Origin: a virus
Length of the DNA stretch: 24,836 bases
Virus record (IMG/VR): IMGVR_UViG_3300028794_000034
Location: 1-24,836 of that record
Direction: 5' to 3' (one strand)
Numbering within the stretch: position 1 is the stretch's first letter; each line of letters starts with the position of its first letter. Positions 151 to 9,240 of the stretch are shown here, piece after piece. Below the pieces are notes generated by a model, which saw nothing but the letters and a program-made list of their open reading frames with translations, made no database searches and was not told the origin of the DNA. Both the position numbers and the translations under genes were made by a program.

Positions 151-172
151 GGAAGGCCCTGCCGGGCCTTCC
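151..172 (-). other. GC-rich hairpin in the 5' leader of the leftward gene at the left edge
   Basis: GGAAGGCCC and GGGCCTTCC form a perfect 9-bp stem with a TGCC loop. It lies just upstream of the ribosome binding site of the gene starting at 133. There is no U-tract, so a leader structure or processing site is more likely than a terminator. Confidence 0.6.
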
Positions 173-197
173 TAGAGTGTCTAACATCTTTAATACT

Positions 198-228
198 CTA
201 GAAGCACTCCCTAGGGTCGTGCTTCTAG
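198..228. repeat. CTAG palindromic repeat, copy 1
   Basis: A 31-bp element identical to 311-341. The arms CTAGAAGCAC and GTGCTTCTAG are perfect 10-bp inverted repeats around an 11-bp centre containing the palindrome CCCTAGGG. It lies downstream of the promoter candidate 254-281, inside the transcribed leader. The symmetry suggests a dimeric DNA-binding protein site, but an RNA hairpin is also possible. Confidence 0.75.
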
Positions 229-3234: not shown

Positions 3235-3249
3235 AATCTCTCCCTCATT

Positions 3250-3356
3250 CCGCTGCTGCGGAGAGGAGTGCACAGAGGGAAGAACGCATCCCACTCGAAC
3301 AAGTCCGAGTTGTGTGGGGGATGGGCGCCTACTTATGTTTCGGCACCTCTGTGCAC
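3250..3356 (-). other. Structured 5' leader with long-range stem
   Basis: GTGCACAGAGG (3268-3278) and CCTCTGTGCAC (3346-3356) are an exact 11-bp inverted repeat enclosing 67 bases. Inside are further possible pairings: ACTCG with CGAGT, and CATCCC with GGGATG. Next to it toward the gene, CCGC-TGCT-GCGG forms a small hairpin (3250-3261). It fills the gap between the genes 3393-3722 and 2728-3234. I infer an RNA structure that controls or processes the message. Confidence 0.5.
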
Positions 3357-3365
3357 CCTTCACCG

Positions 3366-3385
3366 CGCTGGGCTGTTGCCCAGCG
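3366..3385 (-). other. Intergenic hairpin after the 109-residue protein gene
   Basis: CGCTGGGC and GCCCAGCG form an 8-bp stem with a 4-base loop, directly after the stop codon of the gene ending at 3393. There is no U-run, so a processing or stabilising structure is as likely as termination. Confidence 0.5.
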
Positions 3386-3392
3386 ACGGGAT

Positions 3393-3980: not shown

Positions 3981-3992
3981 CTCTCCTCCCGG

Positions 3993-4047
3993 CTGTGATG
4001 CCGCCAATACCGCCCTCCCGAAGGAGGGCGACAAAGGGTGGTCACAG
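3993..4047 (-). repeat. Intergenic structured RNA element, family A copy 1
   Basis: Read on the minus strand: CTGTGA, CCACC, a hairpin with 8-bp stem (CGCCCTCC with GGAGGGCG) and TTCG loop, then GGCGG, a two-base bulge and TCACAG. The ends pair (CTGTGA/TCACAG, CCACC/GGCGG). The 5' arm includes the UGA stop of the upstream gene. It sits between the genes 4042-4242 and 3756-3980, directly before the ribosome site. Copies at 4651-4703 and 5662-5716 keep the outer parts and change the inner stem. Confidence 0.75.
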
Positions 4048-4242
4048 ACTGTCTTCCACCTTGCACTGACATACCGAGTAGACCGAACGGTCTACGTCGG
4101 GCCAATCACTCTGACTTGCCTCGCGGGCCAGGATGGCCCTGTCTGCCGATTCTGCGGTCGGGTAGCACTTGTACATACGCCGGGGCGCTAAGTCTCCGTT
4201 GAGCTTATGGGGGCGGCTGTAGACGATGAACACGGTGCTCAT
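4042..4242 (-). CDS. Hypothetical small protein (66 residues)
   Basis: It starts at the ATG at 4240-4242, which overlaps the stop codon of the upstream gene (TGATG), so translation is coupled. The sequence begins MSTVFIVYSRPHK and contains a helical PTAESADRAILAREA segment. The pattern of a beta strand, a Tyr/Cys pair and an amphipathic helix is compatible with a small alpha/beta fold, but I recognise no family. Its UGA stop lies inside the outer stem of RNA element A1. Function unknown. Confidence 0.6.
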   Translation of the reverse strand: MSTVFIVYSRPHKLNGDLAPRRMYKCYPTAESADRAILAREASQSDWPDVDRSVYSVCQCKVEDSL

Positions 4243-4622
4243 CAGAACTCGCCCTCGGCAAGCTCGCAGCCGTCGTGCTCTCCGCTAGTCAGCACGGCCC
4301 AATAGGACAGGTCTGGTCCCTCAGGCGGAGAGAAGTTGAACAGAACGTCCCCCCCATTCTCCATGCTGTACGCCGCGTCTCCGTTTGAGATCCTGTTGAT
4401 CGCAGCGGCGACGTTGTAACCGACGTCGCACCAGTCACAGCAGTCCGAGCCCTTGAGCCACTGACTCTCATTCTCCGCCTCGCAGAGTTCGAAGTAGTGG
4501 TCTGCCGCGTCCTGAAGGTCGAACCTGAGGGCGCCAAGAGCGTCATCGATCGTGTCGGTGCAGTAGATGTCTCCCTCAGGGAGGTATCCCGGCATGTTGC
4601 TACCGACGTGAATGTGAGACAT
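4242..4622 (-). CDS. Hypothetical acidic Cys-rich protein
   Basis: 126 residues from the ATG at 4620-4622, with the operon-standard GGAGAGATC immediately upstream; an in-frame ATG eight codons earlier lacks this. The protein is strongly acidic. Notable segments are DTIDDALGALRFDLQDAADH, a Cys-rich patch (DCCDWC), which could bind metal, and a Trp/Tyr-containing C-terminal part. No family recognised. It is followed by a coupled 66-residue gene and preceded by RNA element A2. Confidence 0.65.
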   Translation of the reverse strand: MSHIHVGSNMPGYLPEGDIYCTDTIDDALGALRFDLQDAADHYFELCEAENESQWLKGSDCCDWCDVGYNVAAAINRISNGDAAYSMENGGDVLFNFSPPEGPDLSYWAVLTSGEHDGCELAEGEF

Positions 4623-4650
4623 GATCTCTCCTCGTTCTGGTACCACTAGG

Positions 4651-4703
4651 CTGTGATACCGCCAAAACGCAGGGCCGGAGCCCTGCGCTAAGGGTGGTCA
4701 CAG
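4651..4703 (-). repeat. Intergenic structured RNA element, family A copy 2
   Basis: It has the same outer frame as copy 1 (CTGTGACCACC at the 5' side, GGCGGTATCACAG at the 3' side on the minus strand). The inner stem differs: CGCAGGGC pairs with GCCCTGCG around TCCG. Both arms have changed relative to copies 1 and 3 while pairing is kept, which supports an RNA structure. It lies between the 35-residue protein gene (stop at 4705) and the start at 4622. Confidence 0.75.
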
Positions 4704-4704
4704 A

Positions 4705-4812
4705 CTAGCTGCCTGCTGCCCCGGCTCGGACCGCATCGCCACCGTAGTATCGGTAGCTTCTGGCATGGTAGTGCTTGAGCCGGTGCTTCGCGAATTTGAC
4801 CGTTTGAGTCAT
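4705..4812 (-). CDS. Micro-protein, basic (35 residues)
   Basis: MTQTVKFAKHRLKHYHARSY then RYYGGDAVRAGAAGS. The ATG at 4810-4812 overlaps the stop of the upstream membrane protein gene as ATGA, a usual coupling signal, and there is no other start. The product is rich in Lys, Arg, His and Tyr, so it could bind nucleic acid or membrane surfaces. Being so short it could be a chance frame, but the exact overlap, plus the RNA element placed just after its stop, supports it. Confidence 0.5.
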   Translation of the reverse strand: MTQTVKFAKHRLKHYHARSYRYYGGDAVRAGAAGS

Positions 4813-4949
4813 CGCCGTCCAGCCACCTTGTCGGAGATGAACGAGACGCCCTTGAGCGACAAGGTCGCCACGGTCATGATGACCTTTGCTGCCAGCCCTA
4901 GCACCAAGAGGAGTAGGACCAGGAATAGTGCCAGGATGATGATGTTCAT
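4809..4949 (-). CDS. Small membrane protein (46 residues)
   Basis: It starts at the ATG at 4947-4949 with GAGGAGA upstream. Residues 2-27 are almost entirely Ile, Leu, Val and Ala (NIIILALFLVLLLLVLGLAA, then KVIM), a clear transmembrane helix. The remainder is mildly basic (SLKGVSFISDKVAGRR). It is the middle gene of a cluster of three tiny coupled genes (27, 46 and 35 residues). A membrane role is supported; anything more specific is not. Confidence 0.65.
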   Translation of the reverse strand: MNIIILALFLVLLLLVLGLAAKVIMTVATLSLKGVSFISDKVAGRR

Positions 4950-4958
4950 ACCGTCTCC

Positions 4959-5042
4959 TCAGTGAAAGAACGGGTTTATCACGAACGCTGCGAACAGGAT
5001 GATGAACAGTACTAACGCGATGAAGAATCCATCTTTGAACAT
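4959..5042 (-). CDS. Micro-membrane protein (27 residues)
   Basis: MFKDGFFIALVLFIILFAAF then VINPFFH. The ATG at 5040-5042 is preceded by GGGAGGCAAC, a strong ribosome binding site at normal spacing. Nearly the whole protein is one hydrophobic, Phe-rich helix. The next gene starts ten bases after the stop, with its ribosome site GAGGAG overlapping the stop. The strong ribosome site and conserved operon order support translation. Confidence 0.6.
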   Translation of the reverse strand: MFKDGFFIALVLFIILFAAFVINPFFH

Positions 5043-5054
5043 GTTGCCTCCCGA

Positions 5055-5077
5055 ACCCTAGTCGTTTCTTCTAGGGT
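5055..5077 (-). other. Intergenic hairpin before the 27-residue gene
   Basis: ACCCTAG and CTAGGGT form a 7-bp stem with a 9-base loop. It lies between the gene ending at 5097 and the start at 5042, just upstream of the ribosome site. Like other gaps in this operon it is a leader structure, but of its own sequence type. Confidence 0.45.
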
Positions 5078-5096
5078 ATCAGTGATCATGCTATCT

Positions 5097-5372
5097 TCAC
5101 AGATTCTTTTCATTCTGGTAGTACGCCACGTCTGCGGCCATCCGAGCGAGAGTGTGAAGCATGTTGTAAGCCTCTCGCCTGGTCATTCCGAGGTATCCGC
5201 TAACCGTTCCGGGGGCAATCGTTCCGTCATTCATGTAGAGACGGAACGCAACACCGTTGACCTTGTTACCCGTTTGCATCCAGAAGTCGCCGGTGATGCC
5301 GCTGGACGCCAATGTGCGAACGTAGTTCTGTACGGCGCTGTCAAGGTCTTTTGTGGTGATCGTGTTGGCCAT
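5097..5372 (-). CDS. Hypothetical protein (91 residues)
   Basis: The start ATG (5370-5372) has GGGAGAGATC directly upstream, the operon-standard box. The sequence runs MANTITTKDLDSAVQNYVRT, a beta-like middle (GVAFRLYMNDGTIAPGTV) and a helical end (TRREAYNMLHTLARMAADVA). The C-terminal part could be a helix-turn-helix (GTVSGYLGMTRREAYNMLHT), but the match is weak. RNA element B1 precedes the gene. No function assigned. Confidence 0.65.
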   Translation of the reverse strand: MANTITTKDLDSAVQNYVRTLASSGITGDFWMQTGNKVNGVAFRLYMNDGTIAPGTVSGYLGMTRREAYNMLHTLARMAADVAYYQNEKNL

Positions 5373-5387
5373 GATCTCTCCCAGGTT

Positions 5388-5450
5388 GTACTTGTCGGTC
5401 CGAGTAGACCGATAGAACCTAGGTGCTAGACCTAGGTTCGACTGTCACTC
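5388..5450 (-). repeat. Intergenic structured RNA element, family B copy 1
   Basis: On the minus strand: GAGTGACAGTC, then a perfect 10-bp hairpin (GAACCTAGGT with ACCTAGGTTC, loop CTAGC), then a second hairpin TCGGTC-TACTCG-GACCGA, then CAAGTAC. Conserved flanks (GAGTGACAGTC, TACTC, GGACCGACAAGTAC) are shared with 6654-6723 and partly with 6209-6277, while the first hairpin is unrelated in sequence. It sits between genes 5459-5632 and 5097-5372. Confidence 0.7.
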
Positions 5451-5458
5451 GGCTGGAG

Positions 5459-5632
5459 TTAGTCTGAGATGTACCGAGCGATGATCTTTCTGGCCCGCAC
5501 ATCTACCAACCTCTTCTTATATCCGTTGCCGATATTCAGGCCACGGTAGTAAAAGGCCGCTTGCTCGTGAGTTTCCAGGGTGTAGCGGGTGGCGTATGAA
5601 CCTTTACGTCGGCCAACTTGTACTTCGTACAT
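5459..5632 (-). CDS. Hypothetical small basic protein (57 residues)
   Basis: The ATG at 5630-5632 has the exact GGAGAGATC box. The protein begins MYEVQVGRRKGSYATRYTLE and continues with a helix (THEQAAFYYRGLNI) and a basic end (GYKKRLVDVRARKIIARYI). It is Tyr/Arg-rich with a strand-strand-helix-strand order, compatible with a small RNA- or DNA-binding fold, which is inference only. It lies between RNA elements A3 (upstream) and B1 (downstream). Confidence 0.6.
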   Translation of the reverse strand: MYEVQVGRRKGSYATRYTLETHEQAAFYYRGLNIGNGYKKRLVDVRARKIIARYISD

Positions 5633-5661
5633 GATCTCTCCTATGGCTCGGTATCACTAGG

Positions 5662-5716
5662 CTGCGATGCCGCCAATACCGCCCTCCCGAAGGAGGGCGA
5701 CAAAGGGTGGTCACAG
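5662..5716 (-). repeat. Intergenic structured RNA element, family A copy 3
   Basis: Nearly identical to copy 1: inner stem CGCCCTCC/GGAGGGCG with TTCG loop (5680-5699), CCACC paired with GGCGG. The outer stem is CTGTGA with TCGCAG, where one pair is a G-U wobble. It directly follows the stop of the gene ending at 5718 and precedes the ribosome site of 5459-5632. Confidence 0.75.
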
Positions 5717-6208: not shown

Positions 6209-6277
6209 CTGTCGAAACCGGCCTGAGTAGCCGAGCCAACCACCGGACCCGAAGGGCCGGGAGCTGGACTGTCACTC
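6209..6277 (-). repeat. Intergenic structured RNA element, family B copy 2
   Basis: On the minus strand: GAGTGACAGTC, CAGCTC, a hairpin CCGGCCC-TTCG-GGTCCGG, then CGGC-TACTCAG-GCCG. The last hairpin keeps the loop TACTCAG of copy 3, but its stem is one pair shorter on both sides compared with CGGTC/GACCG, a compensatory change. The stop codon of the upstream gene (6276-6278) overlaps the first bases of the element. Confidence 0.7.
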
Positions 6278-6641
6278 AGTGCTCTGCACAGATGTGAATG
6301 TAAGCGCCCTTCACTGCTTCGCCCCACGAAACTCCTTTGTCCTGGAGTTCTTGCACTCGGTTGAGCATATCGCCAACCTGTTCGGACGCGCCGAACGCCG
6401 TGGCGGTCTTGTGAGCGCTCTCGCCCTCGTACTGGACCAATTCCGACAGCGTGACGCCATGGGCGTACAGAACGTGTCCGACGATGCAGCTCGGCGCATT
6501 CTTAGCTTGATCGACATAAGAGCACATCACGTCAACCGCCGCATCCTCGCCACCGGGAGTGACGTAGGTGTAATCGGGACCCATCAGGTCGATGGCACTC
6601 TGGAGTGCTTCGATCGTCGACGTACGGGTGATCTTGATCAT
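6276..6641 (-). CDS. Hypothetical helical protein (121 residues)
   Basis: The ATG at 6639-6641 is preceded by GGAGAGCAAC. The protein is predicted mostly alpha-helical (TSTIEALQSAIDLMG, AAVDVMCSYVDQAKNA, VGDMLNRVQELQDKG) and ends in KGAYIHICAEH. The segment CIVGHVLYAHGVTLSEL is a conserved-looking core. No domain recognised. Its stop touches RNA element B2, and its leader is B3. Confidence 0.65.
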   Translation of the reverse strand: MIKITRTSTIEALQSAIDLMGPDYTYVTPGGEDAAVDVMCSYVDQAKNAPSCIVGHVLYAHGVTLSELVQYEGESAHKTATAFGASEQVGDMLNRVQELQDKGVSWGEAVKGAYIHICAEH

Positions 6642-6653
6642 GTTGCTCTCCTA

Positions 6654-6723
6654 GTACTTGTCGGTCCTGAGTAGACCGAGCCAACCGCCGGACCCTACGG
6701 GGCCGGGAGCTGGACTGTCACTC
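6654..6723 (-). repeat. Intergenic structured RNA element, family B copy 3
   Basis: On the minus strand: GAGTGACAGTC, CAGCTC, a stem of CCGG and CCC arms around CGTA, GGTTGGC, then TCGGTC-TACTCAG-GACCGA, then CAAGTAC. Most of it matches copy 2, and the 3' half matches copy 1. It begins at the stop of the gene ending at 6722 and ends just before the ribosome site of 6276-6641. Confidence 0.7.
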
Positions 6724-6979
6724 AGGCGTTGTGGTGGACCAAGGTGGTGGCTTGACCGAACGCGTCGAACGCGTCCATCGTGAATCGCTTGCCCCCAGTC
6801 CAGAATGCGACGTTCTTACCGCCGACCGCAGCGAGGGTGATGCGTTGCCGCACCAGCGCGCCGACCGCGTTCGTAAGAGTAGTGATCATTTCCTGGCCCA
6901 CGTGCTCGGCCATCATGTCCACGATCTCTTCGGAAGACTTAGCCAGGTGAGTGGGAACGGCCGTTGCCTTGTAGGTCAT
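6722..6979 (-). CDS. Hypothetical protein (85 residues), first gene of the leftward operon
   Basis: The ATG at 6977-6979 has the exact GGAGAGATC box. The sequence is MTYKATAVPTHLAKSSEEIV, a long helical region (DMMAEHVGQEMITTLTNAVG) and a Gly/aromatic end (GKNVAFWTGGKRFTMDAFDA). No family recognised. It is the first gene after a leader of about 600 nt with several promoters and RNA structures, so it is probably among the most strongly expressed early proteins (inference). Confidence 0.65.
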   Translation of the reverse strand: MTYKATAVPTHLAKSSEEIVDMMAEHVGQEMITTLTNAVGALVRQRITLAAVGGKNVAFWTGGKRFTMDAFDAFGQATTLVHHNA

Positions 6980-7397: not shown

Positions 7398-7444
7398 TCT
7401 TGCTGGGCTTTACTCTCTCAGATTCTTGCGAGTCTGTCAAGCCC
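7398..7444 (-). repeat. 47-bp direct repeat, copy 1, with promoter-like core
   Basis: Identical to 7473-7519 (75-bp offset). On the minus strand it contains TTGACA (7435-7440), a 17-base spacer and GAGAGT (7412-7417), close to the Streptomyces TAGRRT -10. It also has GGGCTT/AAGCCC ends and an inner stem AGATTC-TTGC-GAGTCT with one G-U pair. It may be a duplicated promoter, an RNA stem-loop or both. Confidence 0.6.
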
Positions 7445-7472
7445 TTGTCTTTCTGGTGTTTCTGTCTTGCGG

Positions 7473-7519
7473 TCTTGCTGGGCTTTACTCTCTCAGATTC
7501 TTGCGAGTCTGTCAAGCCC
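7473..7519 (-). repeat. 47-bp direct repeat, copy 2, with promoter-like core
   Basis: Exact copy of 7398-7444, with TTGACA at 7510-7515 and GAGAGT at 7487-7492 on the minus strand. The 28 bases separating the copies are unrelated. Confidence 0.6.
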
Positions 7520-7611
7520 GTGTGCTTGAGCGAGGTTTCCGCGTTCCCGGTCTTGTTTTAGGCCCTAAGGCGTTCTCGACTGGTTGCCGCTGTTCCTTGC
7601 TGCTGGATACG

Positions 7612-8477: not shown

Positions 8478-8533
8478 GATCACTCCTAGCGAGGGAATCT
8501 GCCTCATCAGGCCCGGGAGATAATCCCCGGACG

Positions 8534-8553
8534 ACGCTCCCCAGAGGGAGCGT
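8534..8553 (-). other. Intergenic hairpin between the two genes of the leftward unit
   Basis: ACGCTCCC and GGGAGCGT arms form an 8-bp stem with a 4-base loop, just after the stop at 8559. It is placed like the structured elements between genes of the neighbouring operon, but differs in sequence. Confidence 0.5.
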
Positions 8554-8558
8554 TTCGG

Positions 8559-8717
8559 CTACAGCGAGAACGAGCGGGTATCGCCGATCAGGTGAAAGTC
8601 GGGGGCATCCTGCCCCGCCAAGGTGGCGGAGTTGATCAGAACCTCGGTCCAGCTCCCGTGGTCGTTCACGATCGTGCCGGTGAGGATGTAGGCGCCGTAC
8701 GGGATCTTGGTTTCCAT
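8559..8717 (-). CDS. Hypothetical small protein (52 residues)
   Basis: METKIPYGAYILTGTIVNDH, then GSWTEVLINSATLAGQDAPD and FHLIGDTRSFSL. The ATG at 8715-8717 has GGGAGCGATC directly upstream, the local initiation box. The alternating pattern (YILTGTIV, WTEVLINSA) suggests a small beta-sheet protein. It is first in the unit, 30 nt downstream of a promoter candidate. A longer frame on the same strand crosses it in another register and lacks a ribosome site. Confidence 0.6.
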   Translation of the reverse strand: METKIPYGAYILTGTIVNDHGSWTEVLINSATLAGQDAPDFHLIGDTRSFSL

Positions 8718-8819: not shown

Positions 8820-9240
8820 GGCAGACATATCGGACACGCTGGGGCATAGCAGGGCGTATCGGACATCTCTCGCATGTGCGACATGCGTAACGCGTGGTGT
8901 ATAGAGGGGAGCGTAGGACATGTCGGGACGTAGGGGGGCAGGCTAGGGCATATCGGACATGGCGGGCATAGGGGTATATGACAGTCCAATCCCCCCATAG
9001 ACACGCATCTGCGGCTGTATGCGCCCATATCACACGCATCTGCGTACATATCTCCACATAACCTACACATACACACATAGTCGGACATGTCCAGCCCTGC
9101 CATGCATACACATACGTTGGGCTGCATAGGTATACATGTACATCAGAGCGCAGCAGTGCTCACATGAGCGGGACAGATCAGACATGTCCTACATGTACCA
9201 GCATGTACACACATGTCACGCTGTGTCACCATATACCTGC
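8820..9240. repeat. Dense short repeats: TATCGGACA, GACATGTC/ACATGT, ACACGCATCTGCG
   Basis: TATCGGACA occurs near 8827, 8857 and 8951, and TCGGACATG also near 9081. ACATGT palindromes occur near 8918, 9084, 9134, 9183, 9190 and 9211; the site at 9083 is a 10-bp palindrome GGACATGTCC. ACACGCATCTGCG is repeated exactly at 9001-9013 and 9032-9044. The plus strand is G-rich before about 8985 and C/A-rich after it, a sharp skew switch. Confidence 0.6.

What the first reader, a model, noticed from the sequence alone, without database searches (positions are those of the whole stretch)
3993..5716. Family A: a repeated intergenic RNA structure with covarying stem between small early genes
Three copies (3993-4047, 4651-4703, 5662-5716), all on the minus strand, sit between a stop codon and the next ribosome site. 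The outer parts CTGTGACCACC and GGCGG-x-x-TCACAG are kept and can pair. The inner stem is CGCCCTCC/GGAGGGCG with TTCG in two copies and CGCAGGGC/GCCCTGCG with TCCG in the third. Both arms changed while pairing and tetraloop type were kept, which is evidence of selection on RNA shape. They could process the polycistronic message, insulate genes, or bind a phage protein. In copies 1 and 3 the 5' arm could also pair with the downstream GGAGGAGAG-type ribosome site, a possible translation switch.
Basis: seen in the sequence. Interest (0 to 1): 0.75.

Follow-up and report, generated by a model that had tools for sequence, protein, structure and literature searches.

The report
Phage gene-junction RNA hairpins with swapped ribozymes
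In a subfamily of phages related to known Streptomyces phages, many gaps between small early genes carry the same kind of RNA hairpin, kept by paired mutations and sometimes replaced by a self-cutting RNA, which suggests that the phage uses these gaps to cut or seal its long messages into single-gene pieces.

Summary
The three family A copies are real RNA hairpins. A covariance model built only from other phages finds exactly these three in the window (E 5e-16 to 1e-12). Across 16 homologues 17 of 20 pairs changed on both sides. The stop codon of the gene before usually lies in or beside the 5' arm. A second, unreported helix (P3) just before the ribosome site is also selected; it encloses or sequesters the 3' arm, so P1 and P3 compete or form a pseudoknot. 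Known self-cleaving ribozymes sit at equivalent junctions: Hammerhead II in the window (8493-8560), and in a relative a Pistol at the junction orthologous to a family B hairpin. Best reading: interchangeable cut-and-seal sites that separate polycistronic early mRNA, probably through RNase III, leaving hairpins at the new ends. Cleavage is inferred, not shown. Pairing of the 5' arm with the ribosome site is not supported. The hairpins are in no Rfam family; SAS/ESAS of cluster K mycobacteriophages is the closest layout, but is reported to lack RNA covariation.

The parts
3993..4047 (-). Family A copy 1: P1+P2 hairpin between gene 4242-4042 (its UGA stop lies in the 5' arm) and gene 3980-3756
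   Evidence: E 4.6e-16 with a model that excludes the window
3990..4003 (-). P3 of copy 1: CGGC[AUCACA]GCCG, alternative/pseudoknot partner around the 3' arm of P1
   Evidence: sequence; population test
4651..4703 (-). Family A copy 2: P1+P2 hairpin with exchanged inner stem, upstream of gene 4622-4242
   Evidence: z -5.6; E 1.1e-12
4639..4660 (-). P3 of copy 2: GGUAUCAC[AGCCUA]GUGGUACC, 8 bp, sequesters the P1 3' arm
   Evidence: sequence; fragment fold -11.6 kcal/mol
5662..5716 (-). Family A copy 3: P1+P2 hairpin between gene 6197-5718 and gene 5632-5459
   Evidence: E 6.3e-15
5650..5671 (-). P3 of copy 3: GGCAUCGC[AGCCUA]GUGAUACC, 7 of 8 pairs
   Evidence: sequence; fragment fold -11.9 kcal/mol
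5400..5452 (-). Family B copy 3: same architecture, upstream of gene 5372-5097; a Pistol ribozyme holds this place in L067
   Evidence: (z -4.7)
5395..5412 (-). P3 of family B copy 3: UCGGUCU[ACUC]GGACCGA
6223..6279 (-). Family B copy 1: between gene 6641-6276 and gene 6197-5718
6219..6233 (-). P3 of family B copy 1: CGGC[UACUCAG]GCCG
   Evidence: sequence; in the minimum-energy fold of the junction
6667..6725 (-). Family B copy 2: between gene 6979-6722 and gene 6641-6276
6661..6679 (-). P3 of family B copy 2: UCGGUC[UACUCAG]GACCGA
   Evidence: sequence
8493..8560 (-). Hammerhead ribozyme type II with intact core (GAAAC, CUGAUGA, GUC) between gene 8717-8559 and gene 8477-7830; expected cut between 8533 and 8532, leaving a hairpin at both new ends
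   Evidence: Rfam RF02276, 58.2 bits against gathering 37; cut position from established hammerhead anatomy

Best explanation
Each element is an intercistronic cut-and-seal site of a polycistronic early phage message. It starts at the stop codon of the upstream gene and ends 5-22 nt before the next ribosome site. In the closed state P1 and P2 stack into one imperfect duplex of about 22 bp. I propose that this duplex (or the linker between P2 and P3) is cut, most likely by host RNase III as at the R sites of phage T7. After the cut P2 caps the 3' end of the upstream message, and P3, which competes with P1 for the same strand, folds as a 5' cap on the downstream message just before its ribosome site. 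A ribosome terminating at the stop codon covers the 5' arm of P1 and would push the element into the P2+P3 state, so cutting could also depend on translation. At some junctions the phage uses a self-cleaving ribozyme instead (hammerhead, Pistol). Shown: the RNA folds under selection, strand, position, P3, interchange of types and of a Pistol ribozyme at an orthologous junction. Inferred: cleavage, the enzyme, the capping role, any translation dependence.
For: Covariation: type A 20-pair hairpin 98.1% paired against 67.5 +- 1.8, 17 of 20 pairs changed on both sides, covariation 0.803 against 0.191; type C 97.8% against 74.5, 0.615 against 0.162. Elements located by core alone, without asking for stems: the 2-bp inner helix is fully compensated in 8 dinucleotide versions, type C 27 on the early strand and 0 on the other. 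Model hits: 68 of 68 and 70 of 70 on the early-gene strand. Stop codon within -9..+6 of the 5' arm in 54 of the 59 elements where an upstream gene could be called. P3: best helix 4.84 against 3.70 +- 0.11 when downstream flanks are re-dealt; post-P2 fragment -8.0 against -5.2 +- 0.23 kcal/mol. Closed hairpin median 22 bp, IQR 20-23. Ribozymes in the same niche: Hammerhead II in the window; Pistol in L067 at the junction orthologous to window family B copy 3, where other relatives carry hairpins. A, B and C types also replace one another upstream of the orthologues of gene 6641-6276. The seven stop-to-start gaps of about 60-90 nt counted in the window's early region carry A, B or the hammerhead.
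Against: No RNA ends, expression data or enzyme assay exist here. Only one hammerhead and one Pistol were seen, so interchange with ribozymes rests on few cases. After Pistol cleavage the downstream message would have no 5' hairpin, which weakens the capping part. RNase III recognition cannot be tested by sequence; conserved CCA/GGCA and UU/UU or GAG/UUG positions in types A and C are not needed by RNase III. The 22-bp length partly reflects the thresholds of my scan (control hairpins 19 bp). Several junctions carry other structures or none.
Confidence: 0.48

Rival explanations
1. Translation-sensing RNA switch: the ribosome that terminates at the stop codon inside or beside the P1 5' arm decides between P1 and P3 and so tunes reinitiation or Rho-dependent polarity at the next gene, without any cut.
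For: Stop codon in or beside the 5' arm in 54 of 59 testable elements; P3 conserved as a competitor of P1; the closed state is on average 6.4 kcal/mol more stable than the state with the 5' arm and left core blocked; architecture kept while core sequence changes.
Against: Neither state buries the Shine-Dalgarno sequence in the elements examined, so no direct output is visible. Does not explain why self-cleaving ribozymes occupy equivalent junctions.
Confidence: 0.2
2. Transcription terminator or attenuator without a U tail, as reported for early genes of phage phiC31.
For: Strong hairpins just after stop codons; U-less terminators are described for Streptomyces and the phiC31 paper is cited for this (PMC8355165).
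Against: No U run follows the family A or B hairpins in the window. The elements come in series inside one operon with no room for a promoter before the next ribosome site, so strong termination would silence the downstream genes. phiC31 itself has no model hit. A terminator does not need P3.
Confidence: 0.1
3. A new class of self-cleaving ribozyme: P1, P2 and P3 form a pseudoknot that cuts itself.
For: Known ribozymes occupy the same niche; P1 and P3 can coexist on paper as a hairpin-loop pseudoknot; the Pistol class was found by such neighbourhood (PMC4604425).
Against: No invariant unpaired core is shared by types A, B, C and those of Manuel/FlowerPower, whereas Pistol for example keeps 10 highly conserved nucleotides (PMC4604425).
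Confidence: 0.08
4. DNA-level or recombination element (gene-cassette boundary), or binding site of a sequence-specific protein.
For: Elements travel with exchangeable small genes, like SAS/ESAS in cluster K mycobacteriophages (PMC3203893).
Against: Compensatory changes in several helices are not expected for DNA sites; core sequence is not shared between types that replace each other at the same junction.
Confidence: 0.09

Closest known systems
SAS/ESAS repeats of cluster K mycobacteriophages (Pope 2011, PMC3203893)
   Same: Repeated inverted repeats directly upstream of a conserved ribosome-site sequence, nearly all in one orientation, in the non-structural half of an actinophage genome; early genes here share an AGGAGAGA..ATG-type start context.
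   Different: The authors report little support for RNA hairpins in mRNA; here compensation is very strong, and there are an extra helix P3 and ribozyme replacements.
RNase III R sites between early genes of phage T7 (from general knowledge)
   Same: Hairpins with internal loops between small early genes of one polycistronic message; about 20 bp.
   Different: Host group, sequence, alternative helix P3, stop codon at the 5' arm, ribozyme replacements; cleavage not tested here.
phiC31 early-region terminators without poly-U (Ingham 1995, as cited in PMC8355165)
   Same: Strong intergenic hairpins in early genes of a Streptomyces phage.
   Different: phiC31 junctions inspected show other structures, several of them long perfect repeats, and no model hit.
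Hammerhead type II and Pistol self-cleaving ribozymes in phage intergenic regions
   Same: Occupy the same stop-to-start junctions in these phages; the hammerhead also leaves a hairpin at both new ends.
   Different: The hairpins lack both conserved cores and match no Rfam family.
Pistol pseudoknot topology
   Same: A hairpin loop paired to a distant strand.
   Different: In Pistol the hairpin comes first and the partner strand later; here the order is reversed, and the core differs.

Membership tests
Any Rfam 15 family | Score above the gathering threshold | tested here: not met
   Only Hammerhead_II in the window, no family at any hairpin; relatives only Pistol and tRNAs
SAS/ESAS | Repeats directly upstream of a conserved ribosome-site sequence, one orientation, non-structural genes | tested here: met
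SAS/ESAS | Inverted repeats with little support for an RNA hairpin | tested here: not met
   Strong compensation here against the description
SAS/ESAS | 13-bp sequence GGGATAGGAGCCC at the start | tested here: not met
   Start contexts read AGGAGAGATCATG or similar
RNase III processing site (T7 R type) | Imperfect duplex of about two turns between co-directional early genes | tested here: met
   median 22 bp, IQR 20-23; junction position
RNase III processing site (T7 R type) | Cleavage by RNase III | not testable with these tools
   needs RNA ends in wild type and an rnc mutant
Intrinsic terminator | GC hairpin followed by a U run | tested here: not met
   No U run after the family A or B hairpins in the window
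Hammerhead type II (window 8493-8560 only) | Core GAAAC / CUGAUGA / GUC with three stems, score above threshold | tested here: met
   58.2 bits, alignment
Pistol (L067 5524-5589 only) | Rfam score and loop-junction pseudoknot | tested here: met
   43.4 bits; loop CUCAGGG can pair with CCCUGAG
Self-cleaving ribozyme (the hairpins) | Cleavage without protein | not testable with these tools
   needs in vitro transcription
Self-cleaving ribozyme (the hairpins) | Invariant catalytic core shared by all members | tested here: not met
   Types A, B, C and isolate types share architecture, not core letters

The most novel reading that the evidence does not exclude
The P1-P2-P3 element is a pseudoknotted, architecture-conserved self-cleaving RNA (a new ribozyme class) that, with hammerhead and Pistol, dices the early message of a whole phage subfamily at its gene junctions, with cleavage gated by the ribosome at the stop codon.
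Probability: 0.07. Interest if true: 0.95.

Novelty: new variant of a known kind. Interest (0 to 1): 0.7.

Why it matters
The biological role of self-cleaving ribozymes in prokaryotes and their phages is still called open in the literature read here (PMC6155905). These phages put a ribozyme and a covarying hairpin at the same orthologous gene junction, and lab isolates (Manuel, FlowerPower, Abafar and others) carry related hairpins. That makes the question testable: if hairpin and ribozyme do the same job, that job is probably message cutting. It would also define a large unlisted RNA family and an alternative-pairing design placed at stop codons.

Tried and rejected
Near BLAST with the window found only structural genes in GenBank phages and distant BLAST with the element only chance matches: sequence diverges too fast. 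Loose DNA patterns flooded with chance hits; only L067 was a true homologue there. The one scan of host genomes gave no convincing copy. The ribosome-site pairing switch was tested and rejected. Reading the hairpins as known ribozymes was rejected (Rfam with lax threshold). A match of family B's UGACAGUCC to a hairpin-ribozyme substrate was considered (from memory) and dropped: not conserved in other copies. P3 at one fixed register shows no covariation in types A and C; it is near-invariant in C and shifts register in A, so the evidence for P3 comes from the re-dealt-flank tests. Paper searches found no description of these elements; the library lacks most subscription papers.

Full report
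The window is a 24.8-kb viral record whose terminase and portal genes are related to the Streptomyces phages of the Beephvirinae, such as Manuel, FlowerPower and Abafar. The early genes are small and transcribed leftward from about 8.7 to 2.7 kb.

Observation. The three copies are as described. A structural scan of the window, one relative (L067) and the terminase-linked loci (L307-L369) found 148 hairpins of this form between a stop codon and a ribosome site on the early strand, against 34 on the other strand (some of the 148 are chance). Homologues fall into types. Type A (the finding): stem, CCAN, a 2-bp helix XY, UU, inner stem, UU, Y'X', N, GGCA, stem. Type C: CCANN, XY, GAG, inner stem, UUG, Y'X', N, CGGCA. 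Family B of the window has the same layout with another core. A covariance model of type A made without window sequence finds exactly the three copies; a model of type C finds the same three. Over 45 relatives and control records (765 kb) all 68 and 70 hits lie on the early strand, with members in the isolates Manuel, FlowerPower, Abafar, Stella and Zeigle, and none in phiC31. The two hit lists overlap.

Is it RNA? Yes. In 16 type A sequences 98.1% of pair cells are paired against 67.5% shuffled, and 17 of 20 pairs changed on both sides; sliding the partners by one column drops pairing to about 35%. Type C behaves the same. When type C elements are located by their core letters only, the XY helix is compensated in eight different versions.

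Directly after the inner stem a second hairpin, P3, can form. Its loop or arm holds the 3' arm of the outer stem P1. Re-dealing the downstream flanks among elements lowers the best P3 helix from 4.84 to 3.70 +- 0.11 and weakens the fragment energy from -8.0 to -5.2 +- 0.23 kcal/mol. In the window, copy 2 has an 8-bp P3 (GGUAUCAC/GUGGUACC). P1 and P3 may be alternatives, or may coexist as a pseudoknot with a shortened P1; a check that allows short helices finds coexistence possible in all 72 elements tried, so the data do not decide.

Position. The upstream stop codon lies within -9..+6 of the 5' arm in 54 of 59 elements where the upstream gene could be called. The 3' arm ends about 5-22 nt before the Shine-Dalgarno sequence. 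The inner arm shows no special complementarity to its ribosome site.

Ribozymes in the same place. Rfam finds one Hammerhead II in the window, at the junction 8559 to 8477, and one Pistol in L067; none of the other related records searched has either. The Pistol sits upstream of the orthologue (31% identity, E 5e-11) of window gene 5372-5097, whose own junction carries family B copy 3; other relatives carry hairpins there, L316 one of type C. Upstream of the orthologues of gene 6641-6276 the window has type B, L310 type A, and L314 and L332 type C. So types, and in one case a ribozyme, replace one another at the same gene junction.

Mechanism. The shared property of all these parts is a folded RNA at a gene junction, and for two of them self-cleavage is established for the class. 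I therefore favour message cutting, with P2 and P3 left as caps, and host RNase III as the cutter of the hairpins. Capping fits the expected products of the hammerhead (a hairpin on both sides, from its anatomy) but not those of the Pistol downstream. The strongest rival is a switch set by the terminating ribosome. Terminator function is weak because no U run follows, the sites stand in series, and no room for promoters is left. A new ribozyme class is possible but unlikely without a shared core.

Limits. There are no expression data. The window is a fragment. The structural scan selects for P1 and P2, so only P3, XY, strand, and the model test that left the window out are free of that bias. 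Loci are related, so shuffles overstate significance; sliding controls keep relatedness but favour the tested register. Control records and both models cover types A and C, not B. The orthologue table rests on weak protein similarity in places.

Noticed in passing
window 8493-8560 minus: Type II hammerhead ribozyme with intact core at the first junction of the leftward early operon; none in 38 related records searched.
   Followed up: yes
L067 5524-5589 minus: Pistol ribozyme at a junction whose orthologue in the window carries a family B hairpin.
   Followed up: yes
window about 3245-3390 minus; L314 4571, L332 4369, L370 38774 (minus): A second conserved RNA: invariant CCGAAACAUAAGUAGG inside a long stem whose arms differ by compensated changes (GUGCACAGAGG/CCUCUGUGCAC; GAUGUACGG/CCGUACAUC; GAUGCACAGGG/CCUGUGCAUC). 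Not in Rfam.
   Followed up: partly
window 170-228 and 283-341: 59-nt direct repeat (88%), each copy containing a CTAGAAGCAC..GTGCTTCTAG palindrome.
   Followed up: no
window 7398-7448 and 7473-7523: 51-nt direct repeat (98%) in an apparently non-coding stretch of about 850 nt between early genes.
   Followed up: no
window 8830-9240: Divergent intergenic region full of short repeats of GGACATGTC-like and ACACGCATCTGCG words; possible control region or origin.
   Followed up: no
L310 4651-4736 minus: Variant element with an extra perfect hairpin (ACCGUUCAG/CUGAACGGU) inserted before the P1 3' arm.
   Followed up: no
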